This document shows, piece after piece, positions 23,652 through 54,246 of a stretch of DNA of 64,000 nucleotides (its first letter is position 1; the number at the start of each line of letters is the position of its first letter). The translations under genes and the position numbers were made by a program. The DNA lies in NCBI GenBank assembly GCA_000727475.1, contig KL647313.1:517411-581410 (forward strand), given 5' to 3'. The notes under the pieces were generated by a model, which saw nothing but the letters and a program-made list of their open reading frames with translations, was not told where the DNA came from and did no database searches. The stretch comes from Sarcocystis neurona. Lineage: Eukaryota > Apicomplexa > Conoidasida > Eucoccidiorida > Sarcocystidae.

Positions 23652-24415
23652 ATGGGTGTAGCCCACGGCATGGAGCCTACGCGTCCCGACCACGAGCAAC
23701 ACGCACAGGCATTGCGCAGAAGGAGGAGAAGCAGCAGCAGCACCGCGCCAACGACTGCGGCCGACACGCCGCTCCCTGCAGCAGCAGCAGCCATCAGCGG
23801 CAGAAGTATGAGCAGCAGCAGGAGCAGGAGCAGAAGCAGCAGGTCTTCGCACCGGCCTCAGCAGCATACGGCAGATGGCGATGGTAGTACCACGACGGGC
23901 CACGTGAAGCGTAGACGCCTTCTTGTGTCACCCGGCACGCCCCCGGCAAACCGTGAGAAGAAGCAGCGTGCTGCTACGTTTGCCCCTCCTGTTTCAGGGG
24001 TATCAACTGTCAAACGCAGCAACGGCAGACGTAATGCGGCTGCAGCAGCAGCACTAGCCAGAAGAAGGGCTGCTGTGTCGTCGTCACCCGCTGGGCCCAG
24101 AGCCCATGCGGACGCAGCTCCCGCTGATCCGCTTTCCACGGGTCTCTCGCCATTTCTTGGGGCTGCTGCTGCAGGCACCGGCGTTCGTCCGGCTGCTGCC
24201 GACTCCAGTGCTCTTGCAGAAGAGAGGAAGGTCGCCAGTTCGGACGCAGCTGATGCTGCTCTTGCTGATACACCGGCCTCCCACAGCAGAGCTCCTGCTG
24301 CAGCAGAAGCAGCAGCAAAACGCGATTTAGACTGGCAGGCACCGGAACCGACCAGCATCAGTGGGGATGAATACTCAGCAGAAGATCTTCGACAGAGTCT
24401 CCAGCTGCTGCGGCG
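23652..24415 (+). CDS. giant gene exon 1: basic Ala/Ser-rich N-terminus
   Basis: The exon opens at the ATG at 23652 (MGVAHGMEPTRPDHEQ) and ends at a GCG|GTGAGA donor in phase 2. The encoded 255 residues are Ala/Ser/Arg-rich, with two basic clusters that could act as nuclear localisation signals (HVKRRRLLVSPGTP and NREKKQR, residues about 86-105). The acidic-aromatic end is LDWQAPEPTSISGDEYSAED. CAG arrays are in the Gln/Ala/Ser phases. The true start could lie further upstream if the CTG tract before it is an intron. The minus strand also has an open frame, but no splice partners follow from it. Confidence 0.7.
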
Positions 24416-25418
24416 GTGAGACTTGCCCTTTCTTCCGTTGCCCTGACAAGCACAAACACGTCCACTTCCCTCTCTTTCTCTCTCTCTCTTTTACGCGCAA
24501 CATCGCGCAGACAGCTCTGCACATCGAGTCAAATTCCTTGTCACGTGGCGCCGCCTGAGATCTGTCCAGGTGGTCTTCCCGAGTGCTGACGAACATGTGC
24601 ATTCCTCTCTTCTTCGTCAACACTGAAGAGACAGTAAACTCGCCGCGTACGCCAGTGCCCCAGGGGATGTTTTTCTTGCCTACTACAAAGAGACATCTCC
24701 ACGCACCAGGTCACCCCGCCTGTGACGCAGATAATATGTCACTGCCTGTTGGGAGAGGTAGCCGATCTGTAGTGGCGAGGAGGCACACCGAGACATGTGT
24801 GTGCGTCCCTGCGTCCACGAGAGGAAATTTCGCTCTTCCTCGCTTCCCTCGCGTATACATCTGAAACACACGTGTATGTATGAAGTTGGGGAAATACTCC
24901 TGTGTAGGGGTTGACTTATCCAGCTCCTGCTGCTGTTTTCTGTGCTTCACTCGGGTTAATACCGCACGTGGAAACGATCTTTCTATAACGAGTAACTGCT
25001 CAGCTTCGTCCTTGTGTTGTCTGTATGTGCGTGGGGACGTGCATCACTCACGAAGAGATAAAGAATGCTGTCTGCTGCAGACGTCGAGAATCTAACTCAG
25101 TTGTTTCCTCATGAATCTTTTCTCTTATATATATGTGCGGGAGTGCGCTTCTGGACGTACGACGTAACTACACAAATATCTTCTTTCGATATTACCTGTA
25201 AGGCAGGTTGCGTGTGTTTGTTTGTGTGGGTGGATGTGTAGCGTAGGTACAAAAGTGAACATGTATGAAGGGAGCTATGTGTGTTCTGCGTGCGCAGATG
25301 TGGAATGTGGATGTTCGGGCTGTGTGCAGCTGCTGCTGGTGTGCTGCTGCGCCTGGTGTGCTGCTGTGCCTGGTGTACTGCTGCTGCTGCTGCTTCTTTT
25401 TTTTCTCTCTCGCTTCAG

Positions 25419-25982
25419 GATGTATCGCCCAGACGGTTGCCGTCTGATGCTTTCGAGTGTGAAGGAGCCTCGGCACCTCGTTGCTCTCTCTTTGTTTTTG
25501 TGGGTAGTGACGGGTTCTATTCCTCCACCAAAAGGCTTCGAAGGAGAATTTGCGTTTCTTCTTTTTAAAAGGAAGGAGCAGGGTGCTCCCAGCTTGCAGC
25601 AGCAGCGACAGAAGCAGCAGGAACTGCAACAGCGGCAGCAGAAGGCGACCGACGGCCATGCCCCGTCTCTTCCTGCTGCTGTTGCTTCATTCCTTCCTCC
25701 TCGCCATGCAGCTCCTGGTACTGTTCTCTCTCCTGCTGCTGCTGCTGCCGCGTTTCTGTCACCAGTCCCTCCCGCCGCCGCTGCTGCTGCTGCTTCTTCT
25801 GTCGCGGCTTCTTCGTCTTCCTCTCCTTTTCCTGCGGGGCACGCGACGGTCTGCGTCGACGATGCGGGTGCTGACGTCATCGCAGCGCTGCTGCAGCAGC
25901 TGCGGCGCTTTTCTCGTCTGCAAAAACTGCAGCTGCATGTGTGGGGAATTGAGTGGACTTCTGCGACGATTAAGATGCTCGG
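25419..25982 (+). CDS. giant gene exon 2: low complexity then first LRR
   Basis: A very strong acceptor (TTTTTTTTCTCTCTCGCTTCAG) precedes the exon. Its first base completes the Arg codon left by exon 1, so the frame carries straight through. The peptide begins MYRPDGCRLMLSSVKEPRHL, crosses a hydrophobic stretch (VALSLFLWVVTG) that could be a weak membrane segment or simply buried core, then Gln-rich and Ala/Ser-rich runs. It ends ALLQQLRRFSRLQKLQLHVW and continues to IKML, the start of a leucine-rich-repeat array. The donor G|GTACGG leaves phase 2. Both flanking introns carry trinucleotide arrays. Confidence 0.72.
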
Positions 25983-28012
25983 GTACGGATGCATGTCACG
26001 TACGAGGAAGGTTACTGAAGACCGTTTCTCTGCCTCTTGCGACCTCTACGTACGCGGGTCTCTCTGTGCGTGTACACATATCCTTGTGTGTACATACGTG
26101 TCTGCATGTTTATATGCATATCTGTGTACGGACGTATATATTTGTGTGTAGTGTACACGTGTATATATCTATATATGTTACGTTAACATCTTTAAACACA
26201 TGTGTCTGTGTCTCCTTCGTTATATATGCACATATACTCAAAAACTCGTTTGTAAACGTGCGTGTGTCTTTGTTTTCTTTTCTTTCTTCTCGCTGTCTGT
26301 CGAGGCAGACGCGTTTGAGGCGGTTTGTGCAAGCGGAAGAGAGGAAAAGTTTAATTTGAAGAAAATAGGTTTTCGCTGCATCTCGAAAGTTAAGATAGCT
26401 GGTCCGATCCTTCTCTCGGAGACGGCGTCATTACTAACGCACGACGCTACGCGGGCGTTGTAGCTCTGCTGCTCCAGCCGCGCAAGTTCTGCTAGAGTTT
26501 CGTCTCCGTTTTGCTGCAACCTTTGTTGCTGCTGCCCGGCCTGCAGCAACCCTTTCCTCCTGATATCTGGACCACACGTTTCTCTCTGCTCTCGTTTTTA
26601 TTGTCTCTTGCTCTCTCTGGCTCTTCTGTCTCACTCTCCTTCTTCACCTCTTCCGACAGCGTCTCTCTCTCATGCTGCCGCTGCTGCGGCTTTAGCGGGG
26701 GGTTGCAGTTTTCAACTGGACGCCTTCTCCGCGTGCATTCGTTAGTCCTCGTCTGTTGGTGTTTGTACGCCTTCTGGTGGCCACTGCCAGTGCTGCGGCT
26801 ACTGCTGCCGATGTAGCGACTGCTGCTGCTGCCGCCGTCGCCTCTGCTGCTACTACTACTGCCGCCGATGCTGCTGGTACTGCTGTGGATGCTGCTGCTG
26901 CTCCTGCTCCCGCTGGCCCTGCTGCTGCTGCCGCCGATGCTTCTGCTCCTGCTGCCGCCGTCGCCTGTGCCGCTACTGCTGCTTCGCGTCTGCTGCTGCT
27001 GCTGCTGCTTCGGTCGCTTCCGCTGCTGTTGCTGCTGCCACTGTTCTGCGATTGCTGCCAAGAGCGCCGCGTGCCGCCCCTGCTGGTGTGCTCTTTTTTT
27101 CCTGCCGTTGGCTGAAACGGCTGCGCAGTCCGGTGCTGCTGCTGTTGCCGCTGCACGTGTTGTCCTGCTGATGGGTTGATGCTGTCGGTGCTATTGCTGC
27201 TGTTTCTATCTTCTTCGTGAGTGCTGCGTGCGCTAAAATGTGTTTTACTCCTGTTATTTCTCTGCCACTGCTGCCACTCTACGTTGTGCTGCGCTGTGCT
27301 CCTGCGGCTGTTGCTGCTGCCGGTGTTGCCGGGGTGGGGACCCTTGTCCTGCGTTTCCTGGTGCAACATCTCTCGCAGCTGCTGGTGCACTTCGCGCCGC
27401 TGGAACAGCGTTAATCTTGCTGCTGCTCCTGTTGACGCCGGGGTCGCTGGTGCCGTGATGCGGAAGCCGGCTGTAGGTGCTGCTCTCACTTTTCCTCATG
27501 TTGCAGTTGCTGTTGCTCCGTCTGCGGCTGCTGTTTCAGGCGTGATGTCTGCGTATGTATTATACTGTTGCATGTTCAGATTCTTGCGCTTAATGCTACC
27601 GCTTCCGTTACTGCTCGTAGGGCTGCTCCTGAAGCTACAACGTGCTGTCCCTGTTGCTGCTGCTGTCGCTGGACGGCCTGTTACTGTCGTTGCCCCTGCG
27701 GTGGCTGCTGCTGCTGCACGACCCGTAGTGCTGCTGCTGTCGTCGCTGCTGCTGCCGCTTCTGCCGCTGCGGCTACTGCCGCCGCGAAAAAGGGTGTCTG
27801 GTTCGTGTCGGTTGCTGCTGTTGCCGCTGCTGCTGTAGCCGCTGCTGCTGTTGCTGCTGCTGGGGCTGTTGGTGATGTTGCTGATGCTGTTGCTCCTGTT
27901 ACTGGTGCTGCTGTGGCTGTTCGTCTTCGTGTTACTGTCTCGCTGGTGTTGCTGCTCCTGCTATTAATGTGTCACTATTGCTGCTGTTGCTGCTGTGGTG
28001 CTGCTGCTGTGG

Positions 28013-28061
<49 letters not shown>

Positions 28062-28102
28062 CTTGCTGCTGTTGCTGCTGTTGCTATTGCTGTGTGCCGT
28101 AG
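25983..28102 (+). other. intron 2 with long CTG array
   Basis: About 2.1 kb. 26050-26230 is AT/TG microsatellite. 26460-28100 is an almost continuous interrupted CTG/TGC/GTT array running up to the acceptor TGCCGTAG at 28102. The array has no stops over long distances, so it generates long Ala, Leu or Cys frames on this strand (for example 27568-28182) and Gln/Ser/Ala frames on the other. None connects in phase with neighbouring exons. Confidence 0.6.
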
Positions 28103-28234
28103 GGACGTATTTATGGCAAACAGAGAGACGCTGGAGTTGGTGGAGTTGCGGTGCCGGGTCCCCGGAGCTACGCTTTCTTTGATGTTGCAGCAACTTCCTC
28201 CTTACGTCAGATACCTTGACATATCTGAGAACAT
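28103..28234 (+). CDS. giant gene exon 3: LRR core
   Basis: This 132-nt exon lies between TGCCGTAG and an AACAT|GTAAAT donor, with phase 2 in and out. It encodes DVFMANRETLELVELRCRVPG and LSLMLQQLPPYVRYLDISEN. The LxxLxLxxN-like spacing and the YLDISEN motif are typical of LRRs. Joined to exons 2 and 4 the repeats are about 28 residues long, closest in feel to the ribonuclease-inhibitor/CARMIL type. The DNA is unique sequence with ordinary codon use, unlike the arrays around it, which supports an exon under constraint. Confidence 0.8.
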
Positions 28235-29894: not shown

Positions 29895-30265
29895 GATCGG
29901 AGCCGACATGAGCGTCGTCAAAGTGCTGCAGCGCTTGATGAAGGAAAATCGCATTCTTTCGTTGAAGGCAAACCAGGCAGGTTGGAGCAAAGAAGTGCAG
30001 AGGCAAGTGGCTCTTTCTGTAAGCCGCTTGGGAGTTTACAACTCTCTCTATTGGCTAGAAGGCAAGTCTCAACAAAAGAACAGCAGCGAAAAAAACAGCA
30101 AGACGTTGACGCCGCAGGAAGGGGGGGTGGAGCGGCAGTCACAGCAGGACCGGCAGCAACCGCAGCAAAAGCCTGCAGCAGGACCCGGCAGCAACCCCAG
30201 GAGGGGCCGGCAGCAGCCGCAGCAGGAGGCGGCAGCCGCCGCAGGGAGCAGCAGCCGCAGCAGGA
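29895..30265 (+). CDS. giant gene exon 4: LRRs followed by Gln-rich run
   Basis: The first base completes the Met codon split at the end of exon 3, giving the continuous sequence YLDISENMIGADMSVVKVL. Further repeat-like segments follow (RILSLKANQAGWSKEV, VSRLGVYNSLYWLEG), then a Gln/Ala-rich CAG run. Two donors give the phase 1 needed by exon 5: a good one after 29980 (GGCAG|GTTGGA) and a weak one after 30265. I prefer the longer version because 29981-30060 is protein-like, but the short form may be the main or an alternative product. Confidence 0.65.
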
Positions 30266-32855: not shown

Positions 32856-33045
32856 GACTGGACCTCGCTGAATTCTTAGACATTGCTCCCCACCATTATC
32901 TGCTGGCAGCGGTGCCTGCCCTGCCAAGCAGCAGCAGCAGCGCAGCAGCACGAGACCTGCTCCACTTGCATGCGCCGCGCGTCCCCAAGGCAGCGGCAGG
33001 CGCAGCGCAGCTGGCCGTGCATTCTGCGGCAAATGTTGCCCGAGG
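32856..33045 (+). CDS. giant gene exon 5: end of LRR region
   Basis: A strong acceptor (TTTCTTTCGTCTTCTTCTGC..TTCAG) opens the exon. With one base from exon 4 the frame reads GLDLAEFLDIAPHHYLLAAV, consistent with the last LRR. An Ala/Ser-rich helical stretch follows (AARDLLHLHAPRVPKAAAG, QLAVHSAANVARG). The donor GAGG|GTATGG leaves phase 2, which is what exon 6 requires. Reading the other frames hits stops within a few codons. Confidence 0.68.
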
Positions 33046-34719
33046 GTATGGCCTCATCGTTTGCAGATGTATACGTGTGTATGTATATACATGTATATGT
33101 ACAGATTTATATATAGAGAGTTCACGCGATATATTCGTAGGTATTTGCTTTGACAGGAAGATTTGAAGATGTTGATTTACGTGTTGCTGCACAGAGGGAA
33201 GTATTCGCTCCGTCTGAATCGTCTCGGTGGGCGGGCGATTAATGCAGGTGATCGTGGCACAACACACCAGCACCAGCGGGCAACCCCTCAGCTACAACGC
33301 AAGGACCTTTTCATCTATTTATTCAGATATGTACATACGTACATACGTATATTTCCATATCCATATGTATTCCTTTACTATATATATATGTGTATGGCTC
33401 CTATATATATTGATGTGTATATCGATATGTATATACGTATATACACATCTACAAATATACATCTATATATCCATTTATATATGTATATATAATTTTTTGT
33501 GTGTGTAAATAGAGAGGTATGTTCGTCAACGTATGTAAATCTAGAGAGAATTTTCCTTTACTTAAAAACATATATATATACGTGTGTGGGCTTGTGTAGA
33601 TCTCGAAAGAATTCCACTCTCTGATGTAAGCAGATCGCCTGAAAATGACCTGCTGCTGCTGCTTTCACTACCCCTCTCGCTATGGAAATGTTACTAGCAG
33701 CAGCACACTTTCTACGTTCCTGGAAAAGTGGGACACGTAAATACTTTTTCCCTGTTTCTGTGTCTCTGTGTCTGCGTCTCCGTAACACATATGTATAGAC
33801 ACACATCCAGCAGTATAAATAGCACGTGTGGAGACTGTTTAGGGAGGTTTTCACGGCGTTTTCTCTGTCCTTCTTGTCCTTCCTTCTCGTCCTTTTGTTC
33901 GTCTCTTCGTTATTCTCTTTTTCTGGCGCCGCACGTTCTTGATGAAAAGAAGACGGAGGAGACGCGTGTGCAGCACCAGAGGTAGATGTATACAAAAAAA
34001 TGCACGTGTCTCTCTCTCTATATACGCGTGCACCAGGGTGGTTCCTTTTCGGCTTCTCATATGTGAAAATACGCCACTTTGTTTGTCGTCTACTCCATCT
34101 TGTCCCCTCGGCTCCTGCTGTTTCTCCTTGCACTGCTGCTGCGTAACTGTCTGCATGTGATTCTAGGCTGCTTGTACTATTCTTCCTGCTTCTACTGCTG
34201 CTGCTTCTGCTTCTGCCGCTTGTACTGGTACTGTGTCATTCTGCTGCTTCTGCCGCTGCTGCTGCTTCTGCCGCTTGTACTGGTGCTGTGTAATGCTGCT
34301 GCTTCTGCTGCTGCTCCTTCTGCTGCTGCTGCTACTTGTACTGCTGCTGCTGCTGCCTCTGCTGCGTGCACCGCTGCGACTGCGTGTGCTGCTGCGTGCA
34401 CGGCTGCAGCGTGTACTACTGCAGCGTGTACTACTGCAGCGTGTACTACTGCTGCGTGTACTACTGCTGCGTGTACTACTGCTGCGTGCACTCCTACTGC
34501 TTCTCCTGGTGCTGCCGCTTGTGCTGGTGCTGCTGCATGTGGTGCTGTTGCCGCTTGTAGTGCTCCTGCGTGTACTGCACCTGCTGCTGCTGCTGCTTCT
34601 GCTGCTTGTACTGCTGCTACTGTCCATACTGGTGGCGCTGCTTCTGCTGCTAGTTGTACTCCTGCTGCGTGTCGTGCTGCTGCTGGTGGTACGTGTGGGA
34701 TTTGTTCTTTTTTGCGAAG
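33046..34719 (+). other. intron 5: AT microsatellite then CTG array
   Basis: 33060-33600 is mostly (TA)n microsatellite, with one open segment at 33157-33247 (DLKMLIYVLLHRGKYSLRLN) that could be an alternative exon but does not fit the phases on either side. 33840-33950 is pyrimidine-rich. 34150-34690 is a CTG/TGTACTGCTGCG array containing a 12-15 base higher-order unit (GTGTACTACTGCAGC repeated near 34411-34490). The intron ends TTTTTTGCGAAG. Confidence 0.55.
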
Positions 34720-34857
34720 CATGACGGCCGCAGCAATAAATTTTACGCTGCTACGATATTTGAGAATTCGACATTTTCTGCGCCTCCTCGTCGGCTGCCG
34801 CGTTCGGGTTTGGTGGAAGCCAACGCGGCTGGCGCAGAGAACAGACTTTAGCGGCAG
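34720..34857 (+). CDS. giant gene exon 6: first half of Tudor-like domain
   Basis: With exon 5 the first base completes a Gly codon, then MTAAAINFTLLRYLRIRHFL leads into LLVGCRVRVWWKP. That has the form of the first strand of a Tudor/SH3-like barrel (Val-Gly-x-x-Val-x-Val-x-Trp). The donor CAG|GTACTG is strong and leaves phase 2, exactly what exon 7 takes up. Another frame here is also open and protein-like (NKFYAATIFENSTFSAPP), but it does not continue into the Tudor-like part of exon 7. The ATG at 34721 could alternatively start a separate gene. Confidence 0.68.
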
Positions 34858-36430: not shown

Positions 36431-38316
36431 GTACTGGCCAGCGAAAGTGCTGCACGGCTGCTCAGAAACGTTCGTTTGCAAACTTCTGTACGACAACAAC
36501 GAAGTTGACTTTCTACCTCTGCGTTATCTACAGCCCGAACACCCATACAAGTACGGCGGTGGGTGGGCTTCGACGACGGTTTGTTTTCCTTTCCCCTCGA
36601 CAGATGCTGCGGGTTCGCTGCGGCAACCACCTGCTGCCTCTGCTGCTGTTGCATCGCCGGGGGAAGGACGGCCTCGGCTGCTGCTGCAGCCCCCGCTCGC
36701 CGTGACGCCTGCGTGTCGCGGTGTCTCTACTTCTTACTCAGCAGCAGCAGGAGCAGTCGGAGGGCGACGGCAAGCAGCAGCGGGAGGGAAGACAGAAGTT
36801 CCACCAGAGGAGGAAGCAGAGCAAGAAGAAGCAGCGGGAGCAAGGACGAGAGCAGCAGCAGGAGCACAGGGGAAAATAGAGGCAAGCGGGAGCAGGGGCG
36901 GATTCCTGCCGACGCATCTGTTGTTGCATGCGTCTGCTACATTTTCTCCGCCGTGCAGAGAAGCAGTAACACCAGCAGCAACAGAGAGAGACAAAGTCCG
37001 ACAGCCTTCGTTGCTGCTGCTGCCCCCTCGTCTTTCTCCTTCGTCCTCCTCCTCTTTGCAGCAACGCCAACAACAGCCGCAGCAACAGCAGCAGCAGCAA
37101 CACCAGCAGCGCCAGCAGGGTGCGGGATATGTGTTGCTGTCTCCGAGCACCAAGAAGACAAGACAGGAGGAGGAGAGTTCTGGTGTGTCAGTTGGTGCGT
37201 CCCCGTCTGGCTATTCAGGAAAAGCAGCAGCAGCGAAAGGGGAAACAGCTGCAGCTAGAGAAGAAGAAGCCGCAGCCGCACCACGTGGTGGTGCCGGCGG
37301 GGTGGCGCCCGCATATGACGCTTCTCCCTTGAGCCGCCGCAGCAGCAGCAGTTTCTCCGGTGAACAGGGAAACAGGCGCAACAGCAGGAGCAGCAGCAGC
37401 AGCAACGTTTCTCTTGGATTTACCTCGTCATCTCGATCGACGTTTTCCAGCAGCGCGAACGTCCCCCGTGTTTTGTCAGGCAGCAGCAGCAGCAAGTACG
37501 TAAAAGGCAGCTGCAGGAGCAGCTCTCTCGCACGACCTGATGCCACCACTTCTTCGTCTAGCAGCAGTAGCAGCAGCAACAGAAGCAGCAGTAGTAGCTG
37601 CTTGCCACCTTTTGGAAGCAGCAGCAGCAACAGCAAGATACGTAGCAGCAGCAGCAGCTTCTCTTCGCTATTGAATTTTTTCAGATATAGTTCACGTGCG
37701 GCCGCTGCATGCGGCAGTCCCCTCTGGCTTCCTCATTCCTCTCTTCCACCACCTGCTGCTGTTGGTGGTGCAGCCCCCGCTCTTCTTCCTCCTGCCGCTG
37801 CTCTGCCAGAACTTGATAGTCATTCTACCTCTTCTGCTGCTCGGCCTCAGTGTCTCGCCGCAGCAGCAGCGAAGCGGCAGCACCGGCAACAGCAGCAGAA
37901 AGGAGAGCTGAATAGTAGAGAAGCGAAAAGGGAAGAACTCACCAGCAGCCACGACGGGACGGGTGGAGCAGCTGCACCAGCATCCCCATCCTCGTCAACC
38001 CAGCGGAAAAGAAGTACGCCCCCAGCAGCAGGAGCGGCAAGCGCAGCAGCAACAACAGTAACACGAGTCGTACTAGCAGCAACAGCAGCAGAACCAACAA
38101 GAGCAATAGCAGCAGCAGCAGTAGTAGCGGCAACAGCAGAAGCAGCACGAGCCATTGCGGCAGCAAGCGCCATAGCAGCAGCAGCAGCAAGAAGAGCAAC
38201 AGCACCGGCAGGAGCAGCAACAGGAGTAGCAGAGGAACAGCGGAAGCAGCAGCGGAACAGCAGCAGCAAGAGCAATGGCAGCAGCAAGAGCCTCAACAAT
38301 AGCAACAGAAGCAAGC
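36431..38316 (+). CDS. giant gene exon 7: second half of Tudor-like domain, long low complexity
   Basis: The first base completes the Arg codon from exon 6. The sequence YWPAKVLHGCSETFVCKLLY then DNNEVDFLPLRYLQPEHP completes a Tudor/Agenet-like fold (Tyr-x-Ala-x-Val, Leu-Tyr-Asp, Glu-Val-x-x-x-Pro-x-x-x-Leu-x-Pro). The frame stays open for more than 600 codons of Ala, Ser, Gln and Pro-rich sequence to a stop at 38369. The exact donor is unknown. Exon 8 needs phase 1, and sites after 36558, 37914, 38130 or 38316 fit, so the low-complexity part might be largely intronic in one isoform. The end given is the longest plausible. Confidence 0.62.
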
Positions 38317-38903: not shown

Positions 38904-40733
38904 CAGCGGCTGGTCCACGAGGCAGCACCTCTGGTCGGCAGCGGCCGACAGCGCGCACACCGCGGGCAGCCCGAGCTTCAGACGGAAGCAGCAGCAGCAG
39001 AAGTGAAAGCAGCAGCTACAGGAGGGGCGGACGAAGTAGCAGCAGCAGCAGGAGTGGGAGCGGCGGCAGCAGCAGCAGCAGAAGCAGGAGCAGCAGAGGC
39101 AGCAGCAGCGGAAGCAGCAGAGCTGGGAGAGATAGTGGGAGCAGCAGCAGCGCTGGCAGCGAGCAGAGAAGCAGGAAGGAGAAGGCGAGTCATAAGTCTC
39201 CCCATCCAAGCGGCAGCAGGGGGGAAAGGAAATGCTTTCGAAGAAGCAGCATCGGAAGCAGCAGCAGCACCAGCAGCAGGGGAGGGGACGGAGGCGGAAG
39301 CAGCAGCGGCTTCGGGAAGGATTCCAGCAACAAAAGCAGCTGGAGGAGAAAAACGAGCAGCAGCAGCAGCAGAAGCAGCAGCAGGAGCAGCACGCGAAGA
39401 AGAAGCAGCAGCAGCAGGAATCGCAACACAGGTGCTAGAGAGAGGAGAAGCGGGAAGACGGCAGCAACTGCAGCAGAAGCAGCGGCAGGAGAGGAAAAAG
39501 AAGACCAAGCAGATGACGACGAAGAAGCAGCAGCAGCAGAGGCGAGAAGGATCTCTCTGCGAACAACAGCGAAAGGATTAGAGGGAAAAAGAGACGGGAA
39601 ACCGCAGCAACAGGATCAGGACGCCGAAGGAGAAGAGAAGGAGGGAAGCAGAGAAACAAGAAGCAGCAGGTCGACGGCCTCTTTGCCGAGAGGCGGTGTA
39701 CGTACACCGCCGCACAACCGAGCAGCAGCTGGACGCAGTGGCAGCAGTGGCAGCACAGCAGCAGGAGCGGCGAGGCGAGAACACGATGCAGCTGGAGCAG
39801 CAGCAAGAAGGGAAGGAAAATACACCACGAGAAATGAAGACTTTTCCATCGTGTATGAAGCATTTTCACAACAAGAAGAAGAAGGAGAAGGGCGGGGTAG
39901 TAATGCGCTGCAGCAGCAGACGACACCAAGCAGCAGCAGGAAAACTGGCAGTGGGCAGAGGCGTGGACTGCGCCGTGAGGAGGACCCGCTGCTGCTGTCG
40001 GCAACGAGGAGAAGAACAAAGAAGAACGAGGAGCAGCAGCAGCAACAGCGACAGAAGCAAGTGCAGCAGCGGCGGCTGCAGCATCAGCACGAGAAAGGAG
40101 AAGAGAGGGATGTGGAGCAGCACCAGCAGCAGCAGGCCGGAAGAGGTGCGAGGCGGCGCCCGGCAGCAGCAGCAGCAGAGCAACCACCGGCACCAAACCA
40201 AACAGCAGCAGCAGGAGGCGCGAGAGGAGGAGGAGCAGCTGCAGCAGGACGTGCAGGAGTCAAAAGGCGAGACACCAGCAACACCGCGTGTAGGCAGCAG
40301 CTGTCTGAGAACAGGAGCAGCAGCAGCAGGAGGAGCAGCGTCAGCAGCAGCAGCGACAGCAGCCACGCCGGTGTGAAGAAGGAGGCGAGGGGAGAAGGGG
40401 GCGATGAAGGAGAGAATATTTGCTGTCGGCCATTTACGCTGCGGACGGAAGATCTCTCTGCTGCTGCTGCAATGTTTCCGCATCTGTTTGAGCGGTCGTT
40501 GTATACCTACACGCTGGTCAGACAAGCTGCTGCGGCACAGACTCCAGCCGCAACAGAAGCGGTGGAGAAGCAGCAGCAGCAGCAAGAGCAGCAGCAACAA
40601 CAGCAGCAGCAAGAGCAGCAGCAGCAGACGTTCCTGGGATTCGTGCTGCCGCCCTCCTCTTCTCCGGCTTTCGCACCAGCTGTCCGAGGCCAGCTAATCC
40701 CTGCAGCATCCCCAGGCTCCCCACACTACGCTG
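38904..40733 (+). CDS. giant gene exon 8: Ser/Arg/Gln-rich low-complexity exon
   Basis: Acceptor TTTTTTCATTTTTTCCCTCAG (or three bases later). The frame is open for 1,830 nt, through Ser/Arg-rich repeats reminiscent of RS domains and then Gln runs. A more ordinary segment is embedded near the end (CRPFTLRTEDLSAAAAMF, PHLFERSLYTYTLVRQ). The exon ends FLGFVLPPSSSPAFAP and SPGSPHYA before a CTG|GTAATT donor in phase 1. A 20-bp palindrome at 39692-39711 is part of the coding sequence (GGVRTPP). The first 650 nt are also open in the plus-one frame (Ala-rich), so the frame choice relies on the distal part. Confidence 0.62.
39692..39711. other. 20-bp palindrome with GTGTACGTACAC core, inside exon 8
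   Basis: GGCGGTGTACGTACACCGCC is the longest member of the family also seen three times in intron 3. Here it is coding (Gly-Gly-Val-Arg-Thr-Pro-Pro). Confidence 0.85.
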
Positions 40734-41865: not shown

Positions 41866-42273
41866 GTGCAGCAGAGTCGCAGCTGCGCGACCGACGAACG
41901 GCGCGAAGAGAAAGCGGCAGCAGCAGTGACAGCCACTTCTCCACCTCGCGCAGGCACAGCAGCAGCAGCACCACCACCACTCCCCGTCGCAGTGGGGCTC
42001 GCCCACGCGCAGAACCGGCAGCAGCAACGGCAGCAGCAGAAACAGCAGCAGCGGGGCAAAGACAAGTCGCAGCAGCAAAAGAAGAAGAACCACTTGTAGC
42101 AGCAGTAGAGGAGGAGGAAGAGGAGGAGGAGGAAGCGGGGACAGCGCAGCAGGCAGGTGTAGCCCTAGAGCCGCTGCCTCTAGATACGATCGGCAACATA
42201 CTCCTTCCTGGCGAATTTTGTGAATTTCGTGATGAAGAGGAACACCAGGGAAGTGACCCTTCCGATTTTCTAG
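41866..42273 (+). CDS. giant gene exon 9: acidic run and start of second Tudor/Agenet-like fold
   Basis: The acceptor GGAGCAG at 41865 fits the phase 1 end of exon 8; another possible site is at 42012. The peptide is Arg/Ser/Ala-rich, then has a run of about ten Glu (VAAVEEEEEEEEEAG), then VALEPLPLDTIGNILLPG and EFCEFRDEEEHQGSDPSD. The Pro-Gly-x-x-Cys-x-Phe-Arg-Asp segment resembles the first strand of an Agenet/Tudor fold. The donor TAG|GTAATC leaves phase 1. The intron that follows begins pyrimidine-rich. Confidence 0.55.
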
Positions 42274-44672
42274 GTAATCTCGACTCTTCTTCCTTTTCTT
42301 CTTGCGTATTCCCCGTCTTCTCTTTTCGTCGTCGTCCTTTTCTTTGTCTTCTCTGTGTCCCTCTTCTGTCTGCTTCTCCGTCTGCGTCTTTCTCCCCCCA
42401 TCTTGCTGTCGTCTGTTCCGACTTCGTCTTCTCTTAAAAAGGGCAGAAATACGTCCCCTCTTCTTCAGCAACTGCGCTTCTTCTCTTCCTCACCCTCTCC
42501 CTCTCCCCCTCCCTGTACGTAGATATGTGTATATATATATATATCTATATGTATGTGTCTCTATGCACGTATGTGTATACGTAGGTTTAGATATATGGTG
42601 GTATACGTGTGGAGAAACGTAGTAGTGGCTGTGGTCTTCTGTAGAGAGAGAAGTTGTATCATTAAATGTCGCACTCTTGAAGGTTTACTTCTTTCCCTAT
42701 TTCCGAGGTTTTCCTTCCCGTGTCCTTCTCTGTTTTGTGTATTTATATGTGTCTCTCTTTTCTTCTCTTCTTCTCCGCGTTCCTCCGCAAGTTCTCGCAT
42801 GCACACACATGCATGCATGCTCGTGCAGAGGTGTGTGACTCATAAACACGTAATAAACTTCTGTTCCTCTGTACACCTACACTTGCATATATGTATACTT
42901 ATATATGCACATGTATATCTATTTATTAATATATTTATTCATATATAAATAGGTAAATACAATCATAGATACCACTCTCTATATATGTATAAAACTATCT
43001 GTGTACACACACATATATATAAGGGAGGTTGCTGTCGTTGATACCTGGGACGTTTGATGCCAATAGGTATACGTAGATATCTCCACACATATACATATAC
43101 ATGTGTACCAATATATCCACATACAATAAATAAAGACACTCCTGTATAAACATATATATGTGTAGAGCTCTGTGCGTATACAAATATATATATATATATA
43201 TGTGCAAGTGCGCTTGCTGTCGTCGGTATCTGCAACACACGGAGAAAAGAGAGGCAGCAACGTTCTTCACTCGGAACAGAAAATATCAGAAAGGAGAGGA
43301 CGGAAAGTCGAGAGAAGACGGAGAAGCAGAAATAACAGAGAGTGAAGTGAAGGGAGGGAGACAGGGAGGGAGGGAGAGAGGGAGAGAGGGAGAGGGGAGA
43401 CAGGGGGATAGGGGGACAGGGAGAGAGGGAGATAGGGGGACGGGGGAACACGGAGACAGGGGGACAGGGGGACAGGAAGAGAGGGGGACAGGGAGGCAGG
43501 GAGACAGGGGGACAGGGGGACAGGAAGAGAGGGGGACAGGGAGGCAGGGAGACAGGGAGGCAGGGAGACAGGGAGGCAGGGAGACAGGGAGAGAGGGAGA
43601 GAAGCAAAGGAGGTCACTTTCCTGTAGAGACGATCAAGTCGACCTACAACGAACAACAGCTCTGAATACACGAGAACAAACACAAACAAATAGATGTCTC
43701 CCAATATTTATATTGTATATCTCTCTACACACATACGTACATATATATATGTATATGTAGAGAGATAGATATACATATTATGTACACATATGCCTTTATG
43801 TGGGCGCACACATGCATATATACAGATGCTCACGCACACATATATATACAGCAACATATACACATGTATGCATACACATATAATACAGACATAAGCATAG
43901 ACATATTATATATACATACACCCATAAATAGACGTACATTTATATATATAAACGTGAACATACATACACACATATGTATACATACCCGTAAAAATACGTA
44001 TATTTATATATATACCCACGTATATACATGTATATACGTAGTACATATATATAATATACAGACACATATATATATTGATATACAAATATAAACAATATAT
44101 AATATATGCAATATATATAATATGTGTATGTATATATGTTTGTGTGTGAGAGAGAGAGGAGTGTTATTGTGTTGGATGTGCATTTTGTAATGTTGCGCGA
44201 AGAAAGTCCCATCGCAGTCTTCTTTTAGTCGCCTCCCTCTTTTTGTATTCCTCTACAAATATATACACAGAAATCTCCACTTCTATCGAAGACAAAAAAT
44301 TTCTGCACGGGCCTGTTTCCCACGTATATGTATGTGTATGTCTGCTGACAAATATACGCATATACGCATATGTATATGTAATGACGAACATTTGTATCTA
44401 TGAGAACAATTGCAACGAATTTCTTCCTCCTGTCTGCCTGTTCTCCTGTGGAAGAACTTCCCACACCTATACATTTTCTCGTGTATACAGACGTATATGT
44501 AGCTACCTTTGTACTGAGTGAATTCTACTATTTGCATGAAAAGGGCATGTATTTCTTTGATAAGTGACAAATCATATGACAGACAAACACGGCTGCTACG
44601 AGATGTACATCTCTACTGTTGCTGTTGCTGCTGCTGCTGTTGCCGCTGCTCCTGCTGTTGCTGCTGCTTCAG
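42274..44672 (+). other. intron 9: pyrimidine tract, AT microsatellite, G-rich minisatellite
   Basis: 42280-42520 is C/T-rich. 42530-43200 and 43720-44150 are TA/CA microsatellite. Between them, 43330-43610 is a G-rich minisatellite. 44610-44672 is a CTG array leading into GCTGCTGCTTCAG. No convincing extra exon is seen. Confidence 0.6.
43333..43610 (+). repeat. G-rich GGGAGACA/GGGGGACA minisatellite
   Basis: This is an almost pure purine tract of GACAGGGGGACAGGG, GAGAGGGA and GGCAGGGAGACA units. A higher-order period of about 48 bases is visible (CAGGAAGAGAGGGGGAC at 43473 and 43521). It has many closely spaced G-runs of 3-5 on the transcribed-sense strand, so G-quadruplex and R-loop formation is plausible. 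Confidence 0.95.
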
Positions 44673-44743
44673 GAATGGTGATGGACGTGAACGAACGGGA
44701 GCCGCTTTATGTTGTCCGCTGCATCTATCATGACGATGAGACG
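44673..44743 (+). CDS. giant gene exon 10: Tudor/Agenet-like fold, middle
   Basis: Only 71 nt long, with acceptor CTTCAG and donor GACG|GTACTT. Joined to exons 9 and 11 the sequence runs DFLGMVMDVNEREPLYVVRC then IYHDDETVKSTDIRRAVV. The Tyr-Val-Val-Arg-x-Ile-Tyr and Asp-Asp-Glu-Thr-Val spacing resembles Agenet/Tudor strands 3-5. Phase 1 in and phase 0 out both match the neighbours, which is strong evidence because neither neighbour was chosen to fit. Confidence 0.75.
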
Positions 44744-45584: not shown

Positions 45585-46059
45585 GTGAAAAGCACCGATA
45601 TTCGTCGTGCCGTGGTGGTGCCTCTGGACGCGTGGATCGCATGGACATTTCAGTTTCAGCGCCGGCGTCTGTCTCTGGCTGCTGCTTCTTCTTCTCCACA
45701 TTCTGCTGCTGCTTCTTTTCCCTCTGGACGCGCGTCTCGTCGTCCTGCTGCTGCTTCTTTTGCAGCGGGTGGTGCCTCTCGTCGTTCCGCTGCTGCTGCC
45801 GCAGCTGCGGGGAGCGCACCCACGCGCAGAAGAAGTCGAGTCTCCTCTTCTTCTGCTCCGTCTCTTCTCTCTCCTTCCTGCTTTCCTGTTTCTCCCTTAT
45901 CTTCTCCTTCGTCCTTTCCACGTCGAGGAGCTGCTGCTGCTGCTGCTCCTTCCTGTTCACGTCGTGCTGCTACCCGTGGGGCGGCGGCAGCAACAGTGCC
46001 AGAGGACGGCCGACCAGCGACATCGCAGGAGTCGCAGCTTGTCCTTGCAGGCGACAAAA
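45585..46059 (+). CDS. giant gene exon 11: end of Tudor/Agenet-like fold, Ala/Ser-rich linker
   Basis: The phase 0 start VKSTDIRRAVVVPLDAWIAW continues the fold from exon 10. A Ser/Ala/Arg-rich linker of about 110 residues follows, then TVPEDGRPATSQESQLVLAG. The donor AAAA|GTGAGA is strong and leaves one base. The next confident exon that accepts phase 1 is at 48092. Unique conserved-looking sequence at the start and repeat-derived sequence afterwards is the pattern of this whole gene. Confidence 0.73.
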
Positions 46060-48091: not shown

Positions 48092-48224
48092 GTCTCCCCC
48101 CCTTTGCCACGTTCTACTTGCTGCCCCTTGCAACAGCAACAAAACTGCAGCAGCTGCTGATGCCACGCGAGCATCACCCTCTCGCGCAAAAAAATCCCGT
48201 AGACATGCGTCTTCTACCACCAGA
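48092..48224 (+). CDS. giant gene exon 12: linker
   Basis: The first two bases complete a Ser codon begun at the end of exon 11. The peptide is SLPPFATFYLLPLATATKLQ, QLLMPREHHPLAQKNPVD and MRLLPP. The donor CCAGA|GTATGT is close to consensus and leaves phase 2. A different frame (Ala/Lys/Arg-rich) is also open, but would need a different partner. No known domain is recognised. Confidence 0.62.
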
Positions 48225-48936: not shown

Positions 48937-49007
48937 TGCCGAAGACTCGCTTTTCGCACCTGGTGGAGCTGCGCCTGCCTCTCACCTGTCCGCATCCACA
49001 GACATAC
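48937..49007 (+). CDS. giant gene exon 13: short linker
   Basis: A 71-nt segment of unique sequence in the middle of AT microsatellite. The acceptor is weak (CAAAATGAG). The peptide is AEDSLFAPGGAAPASHLSAS followed by TDI. The donor CATAC|GTAGCC leaves one base. Phase 2 in and phase 1 out match exons 12 and 14 without adjustment, which is the main support. Confidence 0.5.
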
Positions 49008-49844
49008 GTAGCCATATATATATATGTATATACGTATATATGTATATATATATACGTATATGTACGCGCGTGCAGGTATGTCCATACGTTAGGTATGTAC
49101 GCGAGGCTGCGTAGTAATTATGCCTGTGTGCTCGGCACATCTCACATTTTAAATCCGATATGTGTGTGTGTGTGTGTGTGTGTGCTTGTGCGGTCTTCTT
49201 TCGCGTCTCTGTTTCTCTTTTGAAAATGGTGGTTCCTTTTTTCACGAGAATTGTCCGATGCCGTCCTCTCGAGAAACGCATGAGTAGAGGAACAGAGACA
49301 CGTTTCTTTGGCGTTTTTTTTCCGCCGGAAAACGCAGTCGCGTTGCTCTCCCACGCGTGTATGGCTGTGTGTCTCTCCCTCTTTTTCGTGTCTTGTGCCA
49401 ACACAGAAAGACAGATACGCAGCGACGTGTGCGACGCTCTGCAGATTACTGCAGACAAGCAGCCACCTATGCGTCTGTCTATCGCAAAGAAAATTCGATC
49501 GCCGTGTGGATGTATGTGTGCACACATCTACATCTCTCGATTTCGTCACCACACGATATATCGGAATGTTCACATTTGTGCTGCCAGATAGGCCTCTATG
49601 CAAATATTACATATATATCTGCAGGCGCGTACATATCATTCTAAATAAATACATATACATATATATGTATGTATGTGGAAGGCTCTGTCCTTTGCTCTCA
49701 CAAACACACACACACACACACACATTTAGACGAGGTGGTCGTCAGCGCGGGCGAGGCACTTTTCCCCTCTTGTACGTCTTCGCATCGTCTGCAAATGTGC
49801 GAGTGTATAGTGAGATGCGGAGAAGATTACACGTGTGTCTCCAG

Positions 49845-49998
49845 CTCGTGTCAACGGAGAAAAGGAAGTTTTCTCTTCTTTGGGGCGTCTTGACTTGCGG
49901 CATGCGGCGGTAGAGGACCGTCTCCTTCTAGCAGGACTGCGTCAGAAATGTAGAAACGCCTCGTTCGCCTTCTTCTCTCCACGTGTACACACTCGTCC
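49845..49998 (+). CDS. giant gene exon 14: helical segment
   Basis: Acceptor GTGTGTCTCCAG. The first two bases plus the one from exon 13 make a Pro codon, then RVNGEKEVFSSLGRLDLRHA and AVEDRLLLAGLRQKCRNASF, a clearly helical, ordinary-composition peptide. Several donors follow (after 49982, 49984, 49998); only the one after 49998 gives the phase 2 needed by exon 15, so the end is provisional. Confidence 0.58.
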
Positions 49999-50398
49999 GT
50001 ATTTTGTGTTTGCGTGTGTATGTCTCTATGAATCTGCGTGTTTACATGTCTACGCAGAAATATATATATATATATAATTGAAGCTCGCTGCTGCTGGCGT
50101 TGCTGCTGATGCTTCTTCTTCGTGACGTCGTGCGTGTACCAGCACAGCAGAACGCGAACAGGTGGCTCCTGCTGCAGTCGCTGCTGCTGTCTCCGCTGCT
50201 GTTTTGCTGGGTTTAAAGTGTTGCAGCTGTTTGTGCTCGTGCCGCGTGGGCCGCAGGCGCTGCCGCTGTTGCTTCTAGTACTGCTGCTTTGGAGTGCTGC
50301 TGTTGCTGCTGCTGCTTTGACATATGAGGGCCTGTTGCTGTTGCTGCTGCTTCTGGTCGTGAACTGCAAGATGCTGCTGCTTCCTCTTTTGCATACAG
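49999..50398 (+). other. intron 14 with CTG array
   Basis: A short intron. A small TA run at 50060-50080 is followed by an interrupted CTG array from 50085 to about 50385, ending CTTTTGCATACAG. Confidence 0.6.
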
Positions 50399-51350
50399 CG
50401 ACTTTGCAGAAGCCTTCGCGCTACGGCAGCAGCAGTTTGTGAAGTTCCGTCTTCGAGAAGCACTGCTGCATGTAGAGCAGCAACAGCAGCAGGAGAAAAG
50501 CAGCAGCGGCAGCTACGAAGACGCGGAAGACGAATCAGGAACAGGAGCAGCAAGAGCAGTGGCGCCAGCAGCAGTTGCCGCAGCACAGCAGCAGGAAAGG
50601 ATAGGAAAGAGCAGCAAAGAGATGCTGCTTCAAAGCAGCAAAAGGAAGACCAGTTCCGGCAACTTGCTCCAAGACAGTCGCAAACGCAGCAGCACCAGCA
50701 TCTCTGTAGGTGGAGGACGAGGCAACAGCAGCAGCAGCAGGAAAGCAGCTGCGGAAACCAGCAGCAGAAGCAAAGCGGCCACAGCCCATGCCGGTGCAGC
50801 AGCAGCAGCAACAGCGCAAGAAGAATTGAACGAACAGGAGCAGGAGGAGGAGGACAAGGAAGCAGACTGGAGAGGGCAGGCCGCAGACAGAGAAGAAGAA
50901 GCAGGAAATAAAGGTTCACCAGAAGAAGAGAACAAAATTGTTTCGACAGAATGTGAAGGTGCTGCGGGTGCTGCCGCTGTGCGTCGCATGCAGCGCTTCG
51001 TGCAGTTGCTGATGGCGCAAGGAGACAAAAAACGAAGTCGGGGGTCTGCAGCGGAGGAGGAGCAGCAGCAGAACCGAAGCAGTAATCTGCAAAGGAGGAG
51101 GAGTAGCAGCAGCAGGCTTGCGAGGGAAAACCACGACCACTTTTTCTTTCGAAGCACGCGTAGTCTGGTGGTGGGAACTGCCACAGATCAAAGAAAGAAA
51201 GAAGAAGAATTTTTGCCGTTGCTGATGCATGCGCTGCATCCGCGTATCCTTCAGAGAGACATGTCTGCCTGGCTTTCTCTTTTGTCAAAGCGGCAGCTCG
51301 TCAAAAAACTTCTTGCTGCTGATAAGGAACTCGCTCTTCTCAAAACGCAG
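50399..51350 (+). CDS. giant gene exon 15: Gln-rich and coiled-coil exon
   Basis: This 952-nt exon starts after GCATACAG and ends at a consensus ACGCAG|GTACCC donor in phase 0. It opens DFAEAFALRQQQFVKFRLRE followed by ALLHVEQQQQQEKSSSG, passes through Ser/Lys/Arg and Glu-rich segments (EELNEQEQEEEDKEADW), then a compact region (VRRMQRFVQLLMAQGDKKRS; FLPLLMHALHPRILQRDM). It ends in an amphipathic helix (LLSKRQLVKKLLAADKEL, ALLKTQ) that continues directly into exon 16. The coding strand carries CAG arrays, while the adjacent introns carry CTG. One of the firmest exons in the window. Confidence 0.85.
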
Positions 51351-53937
51351 GTACCCCCCTCCTTTCCGCTCCCTCCCGCAGTAAATGACATATCTACCTC
51401 AGGTCAAGAAATTCTAGCAGCTTCTACACACAAGCATGCAGACATTGCGCGAGCAAACCACCAAAATAACGGGCTTTCACCGACATGTAGAAACGCGTCT
51501 ACGTACGCAAGCAAACATATCTCTCCATCTATATGTATGTGTTGTGCATGCGTTATTGAAGAAGTGACAACATTCCCATGTGAGGGGAGAGGTCGACACA
51601 GCAGTGGAAGGGAACAACAGCAAAGAGGAAGAAATTTCAACGAAATTCAAGAAGACACTTTCTCTCACTGATAATTCCGTTGCTTGCTGTATAATATCAA
51701 AATACCGAATAGTCGCTGCATGCGCACGTATACACAGGTATATATATACATCTGTCTATACACATACATATATATATATATGCGTGTGTGTATATATATG
51801 TATGCGTGCATGTATATTTAGGCATATGTGTGAAAAGGGAAGTCACTTTGACGTAACTTATACAAATATATATTCGTGTGTGTGTATATGTACATATATT
51901 GATGCATATATGTATATATATGTATGTGAATAGGGAATAAGCTGTTAGTAGAACTTGCGTGTCTGTGCGTGTTGAGTGTTCTCCATTGCGCGCTGAAGAC
52001 GTTTTCAACTATACGAACATATTTATATACAGAGCGTATATGATACATACATATTCCGTATATACACGTATATACATATATAGAGAGGGAATATATATGT
52101 ATGCGTGCGTAGGCGTGTTGAGTTTCTTTTGTGTACGCGTTTGATATCCGCAGAAAAGTGCGTGTTTCACAGAGTAGTTTTATCTGTCCAGTGTCTGTGT
52201 GTGGCTCTGTGTTTCTCCATTTTCTTCCCAGTCCCTCCCTACGTGTACATGTTTATTGATGATAGGAGACGAGACGAGACACAAAGAGCTCTCTTCTTCC
52301 CTTTCTGTCTCTTTGTTTATCCTTTTCTGGTTGTAGACCCCTTCGAATACATATGTGTAACATACACGCATCACAGCGCATGTGAAAGTATCTGACCGTT
52401 GTTACTCTTTACAAGTGTACGCATATATTCTCTGTGTGTATACACGTTTATATATATGTATTTCCCTGCACGTATATCTCGAGAAACGCATGCATGTACT
52501 CTCTGTGTACACATCTATATATTTGTGTATCTTCCGGCATATGTACCTTTATATATGCATGCGCATCCTCCCTGTGTGCCTACACATAGGCATATATCTA
52601 CACAAGTGTGTGTCTACAGGCGTCGGTTCGCAAATATATATATATCTTGTTCCGTGTAAGTACTTGCGTATATGCGTGTTCAATGTATGTTCGAGTATAT
52701 GTCGACTTCTATGTGGATGACGGTGTTACTGCGAAGCTACCTTGAAAAAGACGCATGTTATTTCTTTCTTCTAAACAAATATGTGGACGCAGATTGACGA
52801 GCCGTACGACCGCGTATCTGACAACGTACGCGCATTTTCCTCTCCTCCTCTATTTCGTGGGTTTCTTGCACACATGCAGACACGAGACACATGACGTGTC
52901 CCTTTCTCTCCCTCTCTCTGTGTCTCGCACTTGGTGTGTCTCGTTTCCCTCCTCCTATCATAATTTGACGTGTATACGTAGGGACCTGGGGAAAGCAGGA
53001 AGACTTTCTTCTCTTCCCCCTCCCCGCGTCTCTCTATGGCTCTCTTTATCTTGTGTCCCCAGTACGCTAACATATATATAAGCATATATAAACATATATG
53101 TACATGTATGTATATAAACATATATATATTATGTACGTGCGGGTTACTCTCTGTGGCTCCTTGTCCTTCTCCAGTCCCTGTGTTCACGCGTCTGTCAGTC
53201 TCCCTCTCTCTTTCTGCCTCTGTCTCTCTCTGTTCGTGTTACTCTGCTCCTCTGTCTGCTGCCGTCTTGGGCTGACGTAAAAAGCTCCCTTTAATCGGCG
53301 TTTCTTTTAGTACAGAAGGTCAGTCCTCAATTCCTCTCAGTCCTCAGTTCCTCACGTAGCTGCATGCGTTGAAGAATTCTTCGCTGCGTCCTCTCTCCCT
53401 CTCCTCCTGCTTTTTATCCCTCTCTTCTAACGCCGACGTCTGCTTGTGCTTCCACGACAACACTGTGCTGCTGGTGCTGCTTCCTGCGATACCACGAATA
53501 GTGTCGCTGCTGCTTCTGTCGTGGCTTCTCCTGCTTGCGATACCGCTGCTGCTGCTACTGTTGCTGCTCCTGTTCCTCTTGCTGCTGGTGCTACTGTAGC
53601 TGCTGTTGTCGTTGCTGCTGCTGTTGCTGTTGCTACTACTGTTGTTTCTGCCCGTACTGCTGCTGCTGCTACTAGTGGTTTTGCGCCTGCTAGTGTTGTA
53701 GCTGCGACTGCTGGTGGTGCTAGTGTTGCTGGTGCTAGTGTTGCTGCTGCTACGGTTGCCGCGTGTGTGTGACCTCTGCTGCTTGCGAGACCACTGCTGC
53801 TGGTACCGCTCTTGGTACTGGGACTGCTGCTGCTGTTGCTGCTGCTGTTGCGCTGCTGCTTGCAAGACAGCTGCTGGTACTGGTGTTGCTGCCGCTGCTG
53901 CTGTGGCTGCGGTGGGTGCTGCGCTGGATCAACGCAG
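51351..53937 (+). other. intron 15: AT microsatellite, pyrimidine tract, CTG array
   Basis: 51730-52120 and 52420-52680 are TA/TG microsatellite. 52840-53270 is C/T-rich with a TA island at 53070-53130. 53460-53930 is an interrupted CTG/GTGCTACTG array running into GATCAACGCAG. A small protein-like segment at 52793-52856 (IDEPYDRVSDNVRAFSSP), preceded by a good pyrimidine tract and GGACGCAG, is a candidate extra exon. Confidence 0.55.
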
Positions 53938-54246
53938 GTGCAAAAGGACGTCGCTGTTTCTGCGGAATGCCAGAAGTTGCGAGAGGCTGTTCAGAAGGCA
54001 AAAGAAAAACAGGAAGAGCTGGAGGGAAGACTGCGTTGCATCATTTGTGTCTCTCACGTACGATGTGTTGCTCTTTCTCCCTGCATGCACTTTTACTTCT
54101 GTAGCGCATGCAGCCAGAGTCTCGTGCTTTGCCCTGTTTGTCGTGTGAAAATTCAAAGCCGTCTTCTGCTTCAGCGAGAAGAAGAACCTTCTCCTCGTTC
54201 CTCAGAAAAAGACAGCGATGCAGAAGAAGAAGACGGGGAAAAGTAA
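53938..54246 (+). CDS. giant gene exon 16: coiled coil and C-terminal C3HC4 RING finger
   Basis: The phase 0 start VQKDVAVSAECQKLREAVQK extends the coiled coil of exon 15 without a break. The RING follows: Cys-Ile-Ile-Cys, a 10-residue spacer, Cys-Met-His, Phe-Tyr-Phe-Cys-Ser-Ala-Cys, a six-residue spacer, then Cys-Pro-Val-Cys-Arg. This matches CxxC-x10-CxHx3CxxC-x6-CPxC, the compact type found at the C-terminus of IAP and MUL1-like E3 ligases, and all eight zinc ligands are present. An acidic tail with the run SEKDSDAEEEDGEK ends at a TAA at 54244-54246. A function as an E3 ubiquitin ligase is inferred from family knowledge. Confidence 0.9.
   Translation: MQKDVAVSAECQKLREAVQKAKEKQEELEGRLRCIICVSHVRCVALSPCMHFYFCSACSQSLVLCPVCRVKIQSRLLLQREEEPSPRSSEKDSDAEEEDGEK

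What the first reader, a model, noticed from the sequence alone, without database searches (positions are those of the whole stretch)
23652..54246. A ~30-kb gene predicted to encode an LRR-Tudor-coiled-coil-RING protein
Sixteen exons scattered among repeat arrays join with matching phases. At eleven junctions the phases agree without choosing among sites; by chance each would fit one time in three. The product would carry LRRs, two Tudor/Agenet-like folds, a coiled coil and a compact C-terminal RING in one chain. I know of no described ubiquitin ligase with this combination; that is a statement of recall, not of a search.
Basis: partly seen in the sequence, partly recalled or inferred. Interest (0 to 1): 0.88.

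Follow-up and report, generated by a model that had tools for sequence, protein, structure and literature searches.

The report
Coccidian RING ubiquitin-ligase gene, long introns
A gene in a coccidian-like parasite genome appears to encode a large ubiquitin ligase whose C-terminal coiled coil and RING are well supported, while the claim that leucine-rich-repeat and Tudor-like parts sit in the same protein is plausible but not proven.

Summary
The RING exon is real: PF13920, 40-43 bits against a cut-off of 27, all eight zinc ligands; no close paralogue was found in the 123-Mb genome. I rebuilt a 13-exon + strand model (23652-54246), one open 2,038-residue frame, with splice signals learned from kinesin genes of the same genome. 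At 9 of 12 segment pairs the in-phase site pair beats both wrong phases; 1 of 500 decoy sets on the same strand does as well. My anchors are hand-picked and were revised after a first pass of 8 of 13. The three pairs that fail are those between LRR-like, Tudor-like 1, Tudor-like 2 and coil/RING blocks, so one LRR-Tudor-RING chain is unproven. A separate coil/RING protein of about 345 residues from ATG 50622 is the main rival. LRR identity has weak tool support; Tudor identity has none, and codon scores do not favour the frames of Tudor-like segment 1. Orthologue and literature searches did not run.

The parts
23652..24415 (+). exon 1, low-complexity N-terminus with basic clusters; its first ATG follows an in-frame stop
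   Evidence: upstream stop 23577; donor GCG|GTGAGA; coding log-odds 34.2 in this frame, 0.6 and -0.1 in the other two forward frames
25419..25982 (+). exon 2, ends with the first LRR-like stretch
   Evidence: acceptor in top 0.1% and donor in top 0.5% of window sites; in-phase best on both sides; coding log-odds 10.4, best of the forward frames, but two reverse frames score 11.9 (no stop) and 29.9 (4 stops)
28103..28234 (+). exon 3 (E4 in the scripts), LRR-like
   Evidence: in-phase best on both sides; coding log-odds 1.3, not the best forward frame (3.1 with 2 stops)
29895..30061 (+). exon 4 (E5), LRR-like; leaves by a GC donor AAG|GCAAGT
   Evidence: in-phase best on both sides; the donor would be in the top 0.02% if GC were scored as GT
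32856..33045 (+). exon 5 (E6), end of the LRR-like region and linker
   Evidence: in-phase best with exon 4; pair with exon 6 fails; coding log-odds -17.6 in the same frame after the donor
34720..34857 (+). exon 6 (E7), first half of Tudor-like segment 1; the in-frame ATG at 34721 could be a separate start
   Evidence: pair with exon 7 is the strongest of the 12, 10.4; coding log-odds -0.9, below both other forward frames (measured on 34784-34855)
36431..36558 (+). exon 7 (E8), second half of Tudor-like segment 1; its end is a guess, the exon may reach about 38 kb
   Evidence: in-phase best with exon 6; coding log-odds -0.7 vs 2.5 and 0.4 (to 36550); the frame stays open 603 codons past the donor used and scores 12.1 and 18.5 there
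38904..40733 (+). exon 8 (E9), low complexity with a protein-like end; start uncertain
   Evidence: pair with exon 7 fails: 5.8 vs 5.9 with acceptors near 40.4 kb, 5.2 vs 7.8 with acceptors near 38.9 kb; the sites used here sum to 3.6; pair with exon 9 in-phase best by a narrow margin, 8.7 vs 8.2
41866..42273 (+). exon 9 (E10), first half of Tudor-like segment 2
   Evidence: in-phase best on both sides; coding log-odds 26.6 vs 6.9 and 7.1
44673..44743 (+). exon 10 (E11), middle of Tudor-like segment 2
   Evidence: in-phase best on both sides; donor weak, score 0.1
45585..46059 (+). exon 11 (E11b), end of Tudor-like segment 2 and linker
   Evidence: in-phase best with exon 10; found by eye and added after the first test; coding log-odds -3.1, still the best of the forward frames, while a reverse frame scores 37.2 with 2 stops
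50410..51350 (+). exon 12 (E12), start uncertain (50399 or 50410), ends in the coiled coil; alternative start ATG at 50622
   Evidence: coding log-odds 55.6 vs 5.5 and -2.2; pair with exon 11 fails
53938..54246 (+). exon 13 (E13), helix plus C-terminal C3HC4 RING and stop codon
   Evidence: in-phase best with exon 12, 7.0 vs 5.8; PF13920; helix predicted from residue 2

Best explanation
The interval holds one large spliced gene for a RING-type E3 ubiquitin ligase. The C-terminal RING (C-x2-C-x11-C-x-H-x3-C-x2-C-x6-C-x2-C, then Arg) binds a charged E2; the helix before it, spliced from exon 12 to exon 13, forms a coiled coil that dimerises the ligase; the N-terminal LRR-like repeats and two Tudor-like barrels, joined by disordered low-complexity linkers, choose substrates, perhaps in the nucleus given basic clusters near the N-terminus. 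Shown: the RING by profile, no close paralogue found, helix and RING in one exon, phase consistency at 9 of 12 pairs. Inferred: that all blocks are one transcript, LRR and Tudor identity, dimerisation, nuclear site, substrate choice and catalytic activity.
For: RING PF13920 at 40.3-43.2 bits against a cut-off of 27; nearest solved RINGs BIRC3, BIRC7, BIRC2, MGRN1, CGRRF1. Splice weights from 18 kinesin introns of the same genome. 9 of 12 pairs in-phase best, 1 of 500 + strand decoy sets as good; a 2,038-codon frame. The RING exon has no in-frame ATG before 54085, inside the RING, and exon 8 none before 40472, so neither starts a full product without upstream exons. Coding signal in exon 12 goes on 5' of its first ATG, 8.5 vs 4.1 and 1.2. 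AlphaFold2 puts a helix from residue 2 of the RING exon, blocks of pLDDT 71, 93 and 87 over the first 30 residues, as expected of a coil that continues from exon 12. Basic clusters at model residues 22, 86, 103 and 1830.
Against: The three pairs that link the blocks fail (for exons 7/8). The called frame has the best forward coding log-odds in 9 of 13 exons; it does not in exons 3, 6, 7 and 8, two of which hold Tudor-like segment 1. Exon 11 scores negative and a reverse frame there 37.2 with 2 stops; exon 2 has reverse frames at 11.9 (no stop) and 29.9 (4 stops). Model introns (median 1,897) are longer than the 18 kinesin introns (median 467, maximum 1,979), though that set leaves out pairs I could not resolve. 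A whole-strand dynamic-programming prediction with the same signals over-predicted and did not reproduce this model. No transcript or orthologue evidence. No tool supports the Tudor calls.
Confidence: 0.47

Rival explanations
1. Two or three neighbouring genes on one strand: an LRR gene (exons 1-5), a Tudor-like gene starting at ATG 34721, and a short coiled-coil/RING ligase starting at ATG 50622 (about 345 residues). The last would still work as a dimeric RING ligase, with an unknown substrate receptor.
For: Exon pairs 5/6, 7/8 and 11/12 fail the phase test; in-frame ATG codons at 34721 and 50622.
Against: No in-frame stop follows exon 5 for 39 codons, and those codons score -17.6; coding signal extends upstream of 50622; exon 8 has no in-frame ATG before 40472.
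Confidence: 0.36
2. The coil/RING exons are real, but several upstream segments (Tudor-like segments, exon 11, low-complexity exon 8) are chance open frames in CAG-rich DNA; the true protein has other middle exons.
For: CAG-type arrays are many and hold few stops in any forward frame; exon 8 scores 66.7 in the called frame and 67.4 in another that has 3 stops; exons 6, 7 and 11 score below zero; Tudor-like segments have no profile match.
Against: Pairs 34857/36431, 42273/44673 and 44743/45585 are in-phase best, the first with the highest score of the 12.
Confidence: 0.17

Closest known systems
LRSAM1 (human LRR and SAM domain E3 ligase; architecture recalled, no call)
   Same: N-terminal LRRs, central coiled coil, C-terminal compact RING
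   Different: LRSAM1 has a SAM domain and PSAP-type motifs and no Tudor-like modules; the repeats here look to me closer to ribonuclease-inhibitor repeats (second PDB match, E 0.22)
UHRF1/UHRF2 (recalled, no call)
   Same: Tudor-type barrels upstream of a C-terminal RING, nuclear
   Different: UHRF proteins have UBL, PHD and SRA domains, none seen in the segments scanned; no LRR
IAP-type RINGs (BIRC2, BIRC3, BIRC4/XIAP, BIRC7)
   Same: best solved-structure matches of the RING, E 7e-6 to 4e-4
   Different: no BIR repeat matched in the ten segments scanned
RNF17/TDRD4 (recalled, no call)
   Same: RING, coiled coil and Tudor modules in one protein
   Different: there the RING is N-terminal and the Tudors C-terminal; no LRR

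Membership tests
C3HC4 RING E3 ligase (PF13920) | eight zinc ligands in RING spacing | tested here: met
   profile positions 4-48 of 49, above the cut-off; pattern match
C3HC4 RING E3 ligase (PF13920) | E2-dependent ubiquitin transfer | not testable with these tools
   needs an assay
Leucine-rich repeat protein | match to an LRR profile | tested here: not met
   no LRR model in Pfam scans at E up to 10, only Angiomotin_C at E 0.07 (HMMER filters drop most weak matches); LRR_6 in the genome: 7 places, none in the window
Leucine-rich repeat protein | sequence similarity to solved LRR proteins | tested here: inconclusive
   YopM E 0.004 and ribonuclease inhibitor E 0.22, the only 2 chains with E up to 10; no single stretch passes on its own
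Tudor/Agenet domain | match to a Tudor-clan profile or a solved Tudor | tested here: not met
   no Tudor-type match for segment 1 or 2; Tudor_3 in the genome: 1 weak place, not in the window
LRSAM1-like | SAM domain | tested here: not met
   none in the exon 12 frame or in the joined end of exons 12-13
UHRF1-like | SRA and PHD domains | tested here: inconclusive
   none among the matches of the segments scanned; not every open frame of the interval was scanned
One LRR-Tudor-coil-RING chain | in-phase splice continuity between all blocks | tested here: inconclusive
   9 of 12 pairs in-phase best; the three block links fail

The most novel reading that the evidence does not exclude
A coccidian chromatin-reading ubiquitin ligase that combines an LRR substrate receptor, two Tudor-type methyl readers, a dimerising coiled coil and a RING in one chain, a combination I know from no described ligase (recall, not a search).
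Probability: 0.23. Interest if true: 0.65.

Novelty: new variant of a known kind. Interest (0 to 1): 0.4.

Why it matters
To my knowledge few apicomplexan ubiquitin ligases have an assigned role; one that links methyl-lysine or methyl-arginine reading to ubiquitin transfer would give a direct handle on how these parasites regulate chromatin. If only the coiled-coil/RING part is one gene, the matter is ordinary.

Tried and rejected
Exon at 26.3 kb: rejected, because exon 2 joins 28103 directly with a better in-phase score. Another frame for 32880-33045 with cysteines resembling a zinc ribbon or CXXC finger (DZR_2 E 0.026, zf-CXXC E 0.26): rejected, because the sites it needs score -4.6 and -2.6. 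An extra exon at 49845-49962: in-phase best on both sides (2.1 and 0.7) but with weak sites; left out. Search for other linking exons between 46.1 and 50.3 kb and between 36.6 and 38.9 kb: candidates were short, low in complexity, weakly scored, or (36.7-37.4 kb) parts of a longer exon 7 that I could not settle. Whole-window dynamic-programming gene prediction with codon and splice scores over-predicts on both strands, codon bias being weak. AlphaFold2 of the RING exon without an alignment: first 30 residues helical and confident, RING part poor (mean pLDDT 66.5; the helix is drawn on into the RING); its Foldseek search had 15 matches with E up to 10 and none up to 0.001. AlphaFold2 of the second half of Tudor-like segment 1: mean pLDDT 51.7, no use.

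For these I lowered the best explanation from 0.50 to 0.47 and the novel case from 0.25 to 0.23.
Full report
Where it lies. The window is C26:517411-581410 of a genome of 122,989,501 bases in 74 contigs, held without a name and without relatives. CAG-type arrays are frequent, so open frames alone mean little here.

RING. The last exon carries a C3HC4 RING (PF13920, 41.3 bits with its spliced upstream coil; the best of 11 matches of this family found in the genome, whose counts are lower bounds). All eight ligands are present and Arg follows the last pair. The best solved matches are BIRC3, BIRC7, BIRC2, MGRN1 and CGRRF1. That an Arg at this place helps to activate E2-ubiquitin is recalled.

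Splice yardstick. I took kinesin motor exons (52 matches), sought introns between neighbouring exons, and used the 18 that fitted well for donor and acceptor weights; pairs without a convincing junction were left out. Codon bias is weak (3,692 codons), so coding scores help only partly.

Segment pairs. For hand-picked anchor segments I compared the best in-phase pair of sites with the best of each wrong phase. First pass: 8 of 13 in-phase best. Two of the five failures involved the 26.3-kb segment, which I then dropped; one was the gap between 44.7 and 50.4 kb, where I added 45585-46059 by eye because it continues a Tudor-like strand pattern. Second pass: 9 of 12. Decoy anchors: mean fraction 0.32 on the + strand, 1 of 500 sets at or above 9/12; - strand 0.34, 3 of 500. 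The mean margin is less striking: 26 of 500 decoy sets reach it on each strand. Taken singly, the in-phase scores are reached by 0.1% (exons 6/7) to 28% (exons 5/6) of decoy pairs. Because the second pass was shaped by the first, the true significance is lower than these figures.

What fails. Exons 5/6: 1.4 in phase vs 4.1. Exons 11/12: 2.5 vs 5.6. Exons 7/8: 5.8 vs 5.9 with acceptors near 40.4 kb, and 5.2 vs 7.8 with acceptors near 38.9 kb; the sites that my model uses there, 36558 and 38904, sum to 3.6. These places divide the chain into LRR-like exons 1-5, Tudor-like 1 exons 6-7, Tudor-like 2 exons 8-11 and coil/RING exons 12-13. Phase evidence thus supports each block but not their union. 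Exon 7 may be much longer: its frame is open for 603 codons past the donor with coding scores of 12.1 and 18.5.

Codon scores. The called frame has the best forward log-odds in 9 of 13 exons; it does not in exons 3, 6, 7 and 8. Exons 6 and 7, which hold Tudor-like segment 1, score -0.9 and -0.7 and are short (24 and 39 codons measured). Exon 11 scores -3.1. Reverse frames score higher than the called frame in exon 2 (11.9 without a stop, 29.9 with four) and exon 11 (37.2 with two stops).

Can blocks stand alone? Exon 13 has no in-frame ATG before 54085 (inside the RING), exon 8 none before 40472, exon 12 none before 50622. Exons 2, 3, 4, 6 and 10 have one within 13 bases of their start, so a start there cannot be excluded; the one in exon 6 (34721) would split LRR from Tudor. 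A separate coil/RING gene from 50622 would have about 345 residues; coding signal 5' of 50622 in the same frame (8.5 vs 4.1 and 1.2) speaks mildly against it. Exon 5 runs on for 39 codons without a stop and with a score of -17.6, which favours splicing out of it.

Modules. The spliced LRR-like stretch (exons 2-5) finds only two PDB chains with E up to 10, YopM (0.004) and ribonuclease inhibitor (0.22), both LRR proteins to my knowledge; no single stretch passes on its own. An earlier version with the 26.3-kb segment gave YopM at 4.6e-4 and a second YopM sequence at 3. Pfam finds no LRR in it, only Angiomotin_C at E 0.07. The Tudor-like segments have no Tudor-type match: segment 1 matches one antibody chain at E 0.54, segment 2 UbiD at E 0.21, otherwise nothing. 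The resemblance to 53BP1-type Tudors is my recollection. The coil enters the RING exon as a helix predicted from residue 2, confident over about 30 residues.

Copy number. A search with 452 residues of hand-joined pieces finds 11 places in the window and one elsewhere at E 0.41, over the RING at C14: no close paralogue found.

Size. The model spans 30.6 kb with introns of 841-4,350 bases, median 1,897; the 18 kinesin introns have median 467 and maximum 1,979, a set that leaves out unresolved pairs. Kinesin matches on C11 spread over about 9 kb (864262-873537) if they are one gene, so long genes occur, but this one is at the long end.

Verdict. A RING E3 ligase gene with coiled coil: above 0.9 in my judgement. 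One chain with LRR-like and Tudor-like parts: about even. Novelty cannot be judged without orthologue and literature searches, which did not run.

Noticed in passing
window 15264-17462 (+): 733-codon open frame with a match to Pfam Kinase-like PF14531 (E 2.8e-5, just under the cut-off), like a coccidian rhoptry (pseudo)kinase gene, 6 kb upstream of the gene studied.
   Followed up: partly
window 62297-62794 (-): Very weak second match to PF14531 (E 0.07), perhaps chance.
   Followed up: no
window 30061/30062: Probable GC-AG intron: donor AAG|GCAAGT, phase fits the acceptor at 32856.
   Followed up: partly
window 26305-26460 (+): Protein-like open segment that does not fit in phase between exons 2 and 3; may be chance.
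   Followed up: partly
window 32880-33100 (+, third frame): Cysteine-rich reading with weak likeness to DZR_2 and zf-CXXC; the splice sites it would need are poor.
   Followed up: partly
window 43355-43600: Array of about 31 copies of an 8-base unit AGGGAGAC inside an intron of the model.
   Followed up: no
window 60999-61139: Two 70-base tandem copies, 97% matches.
   Followed up: no
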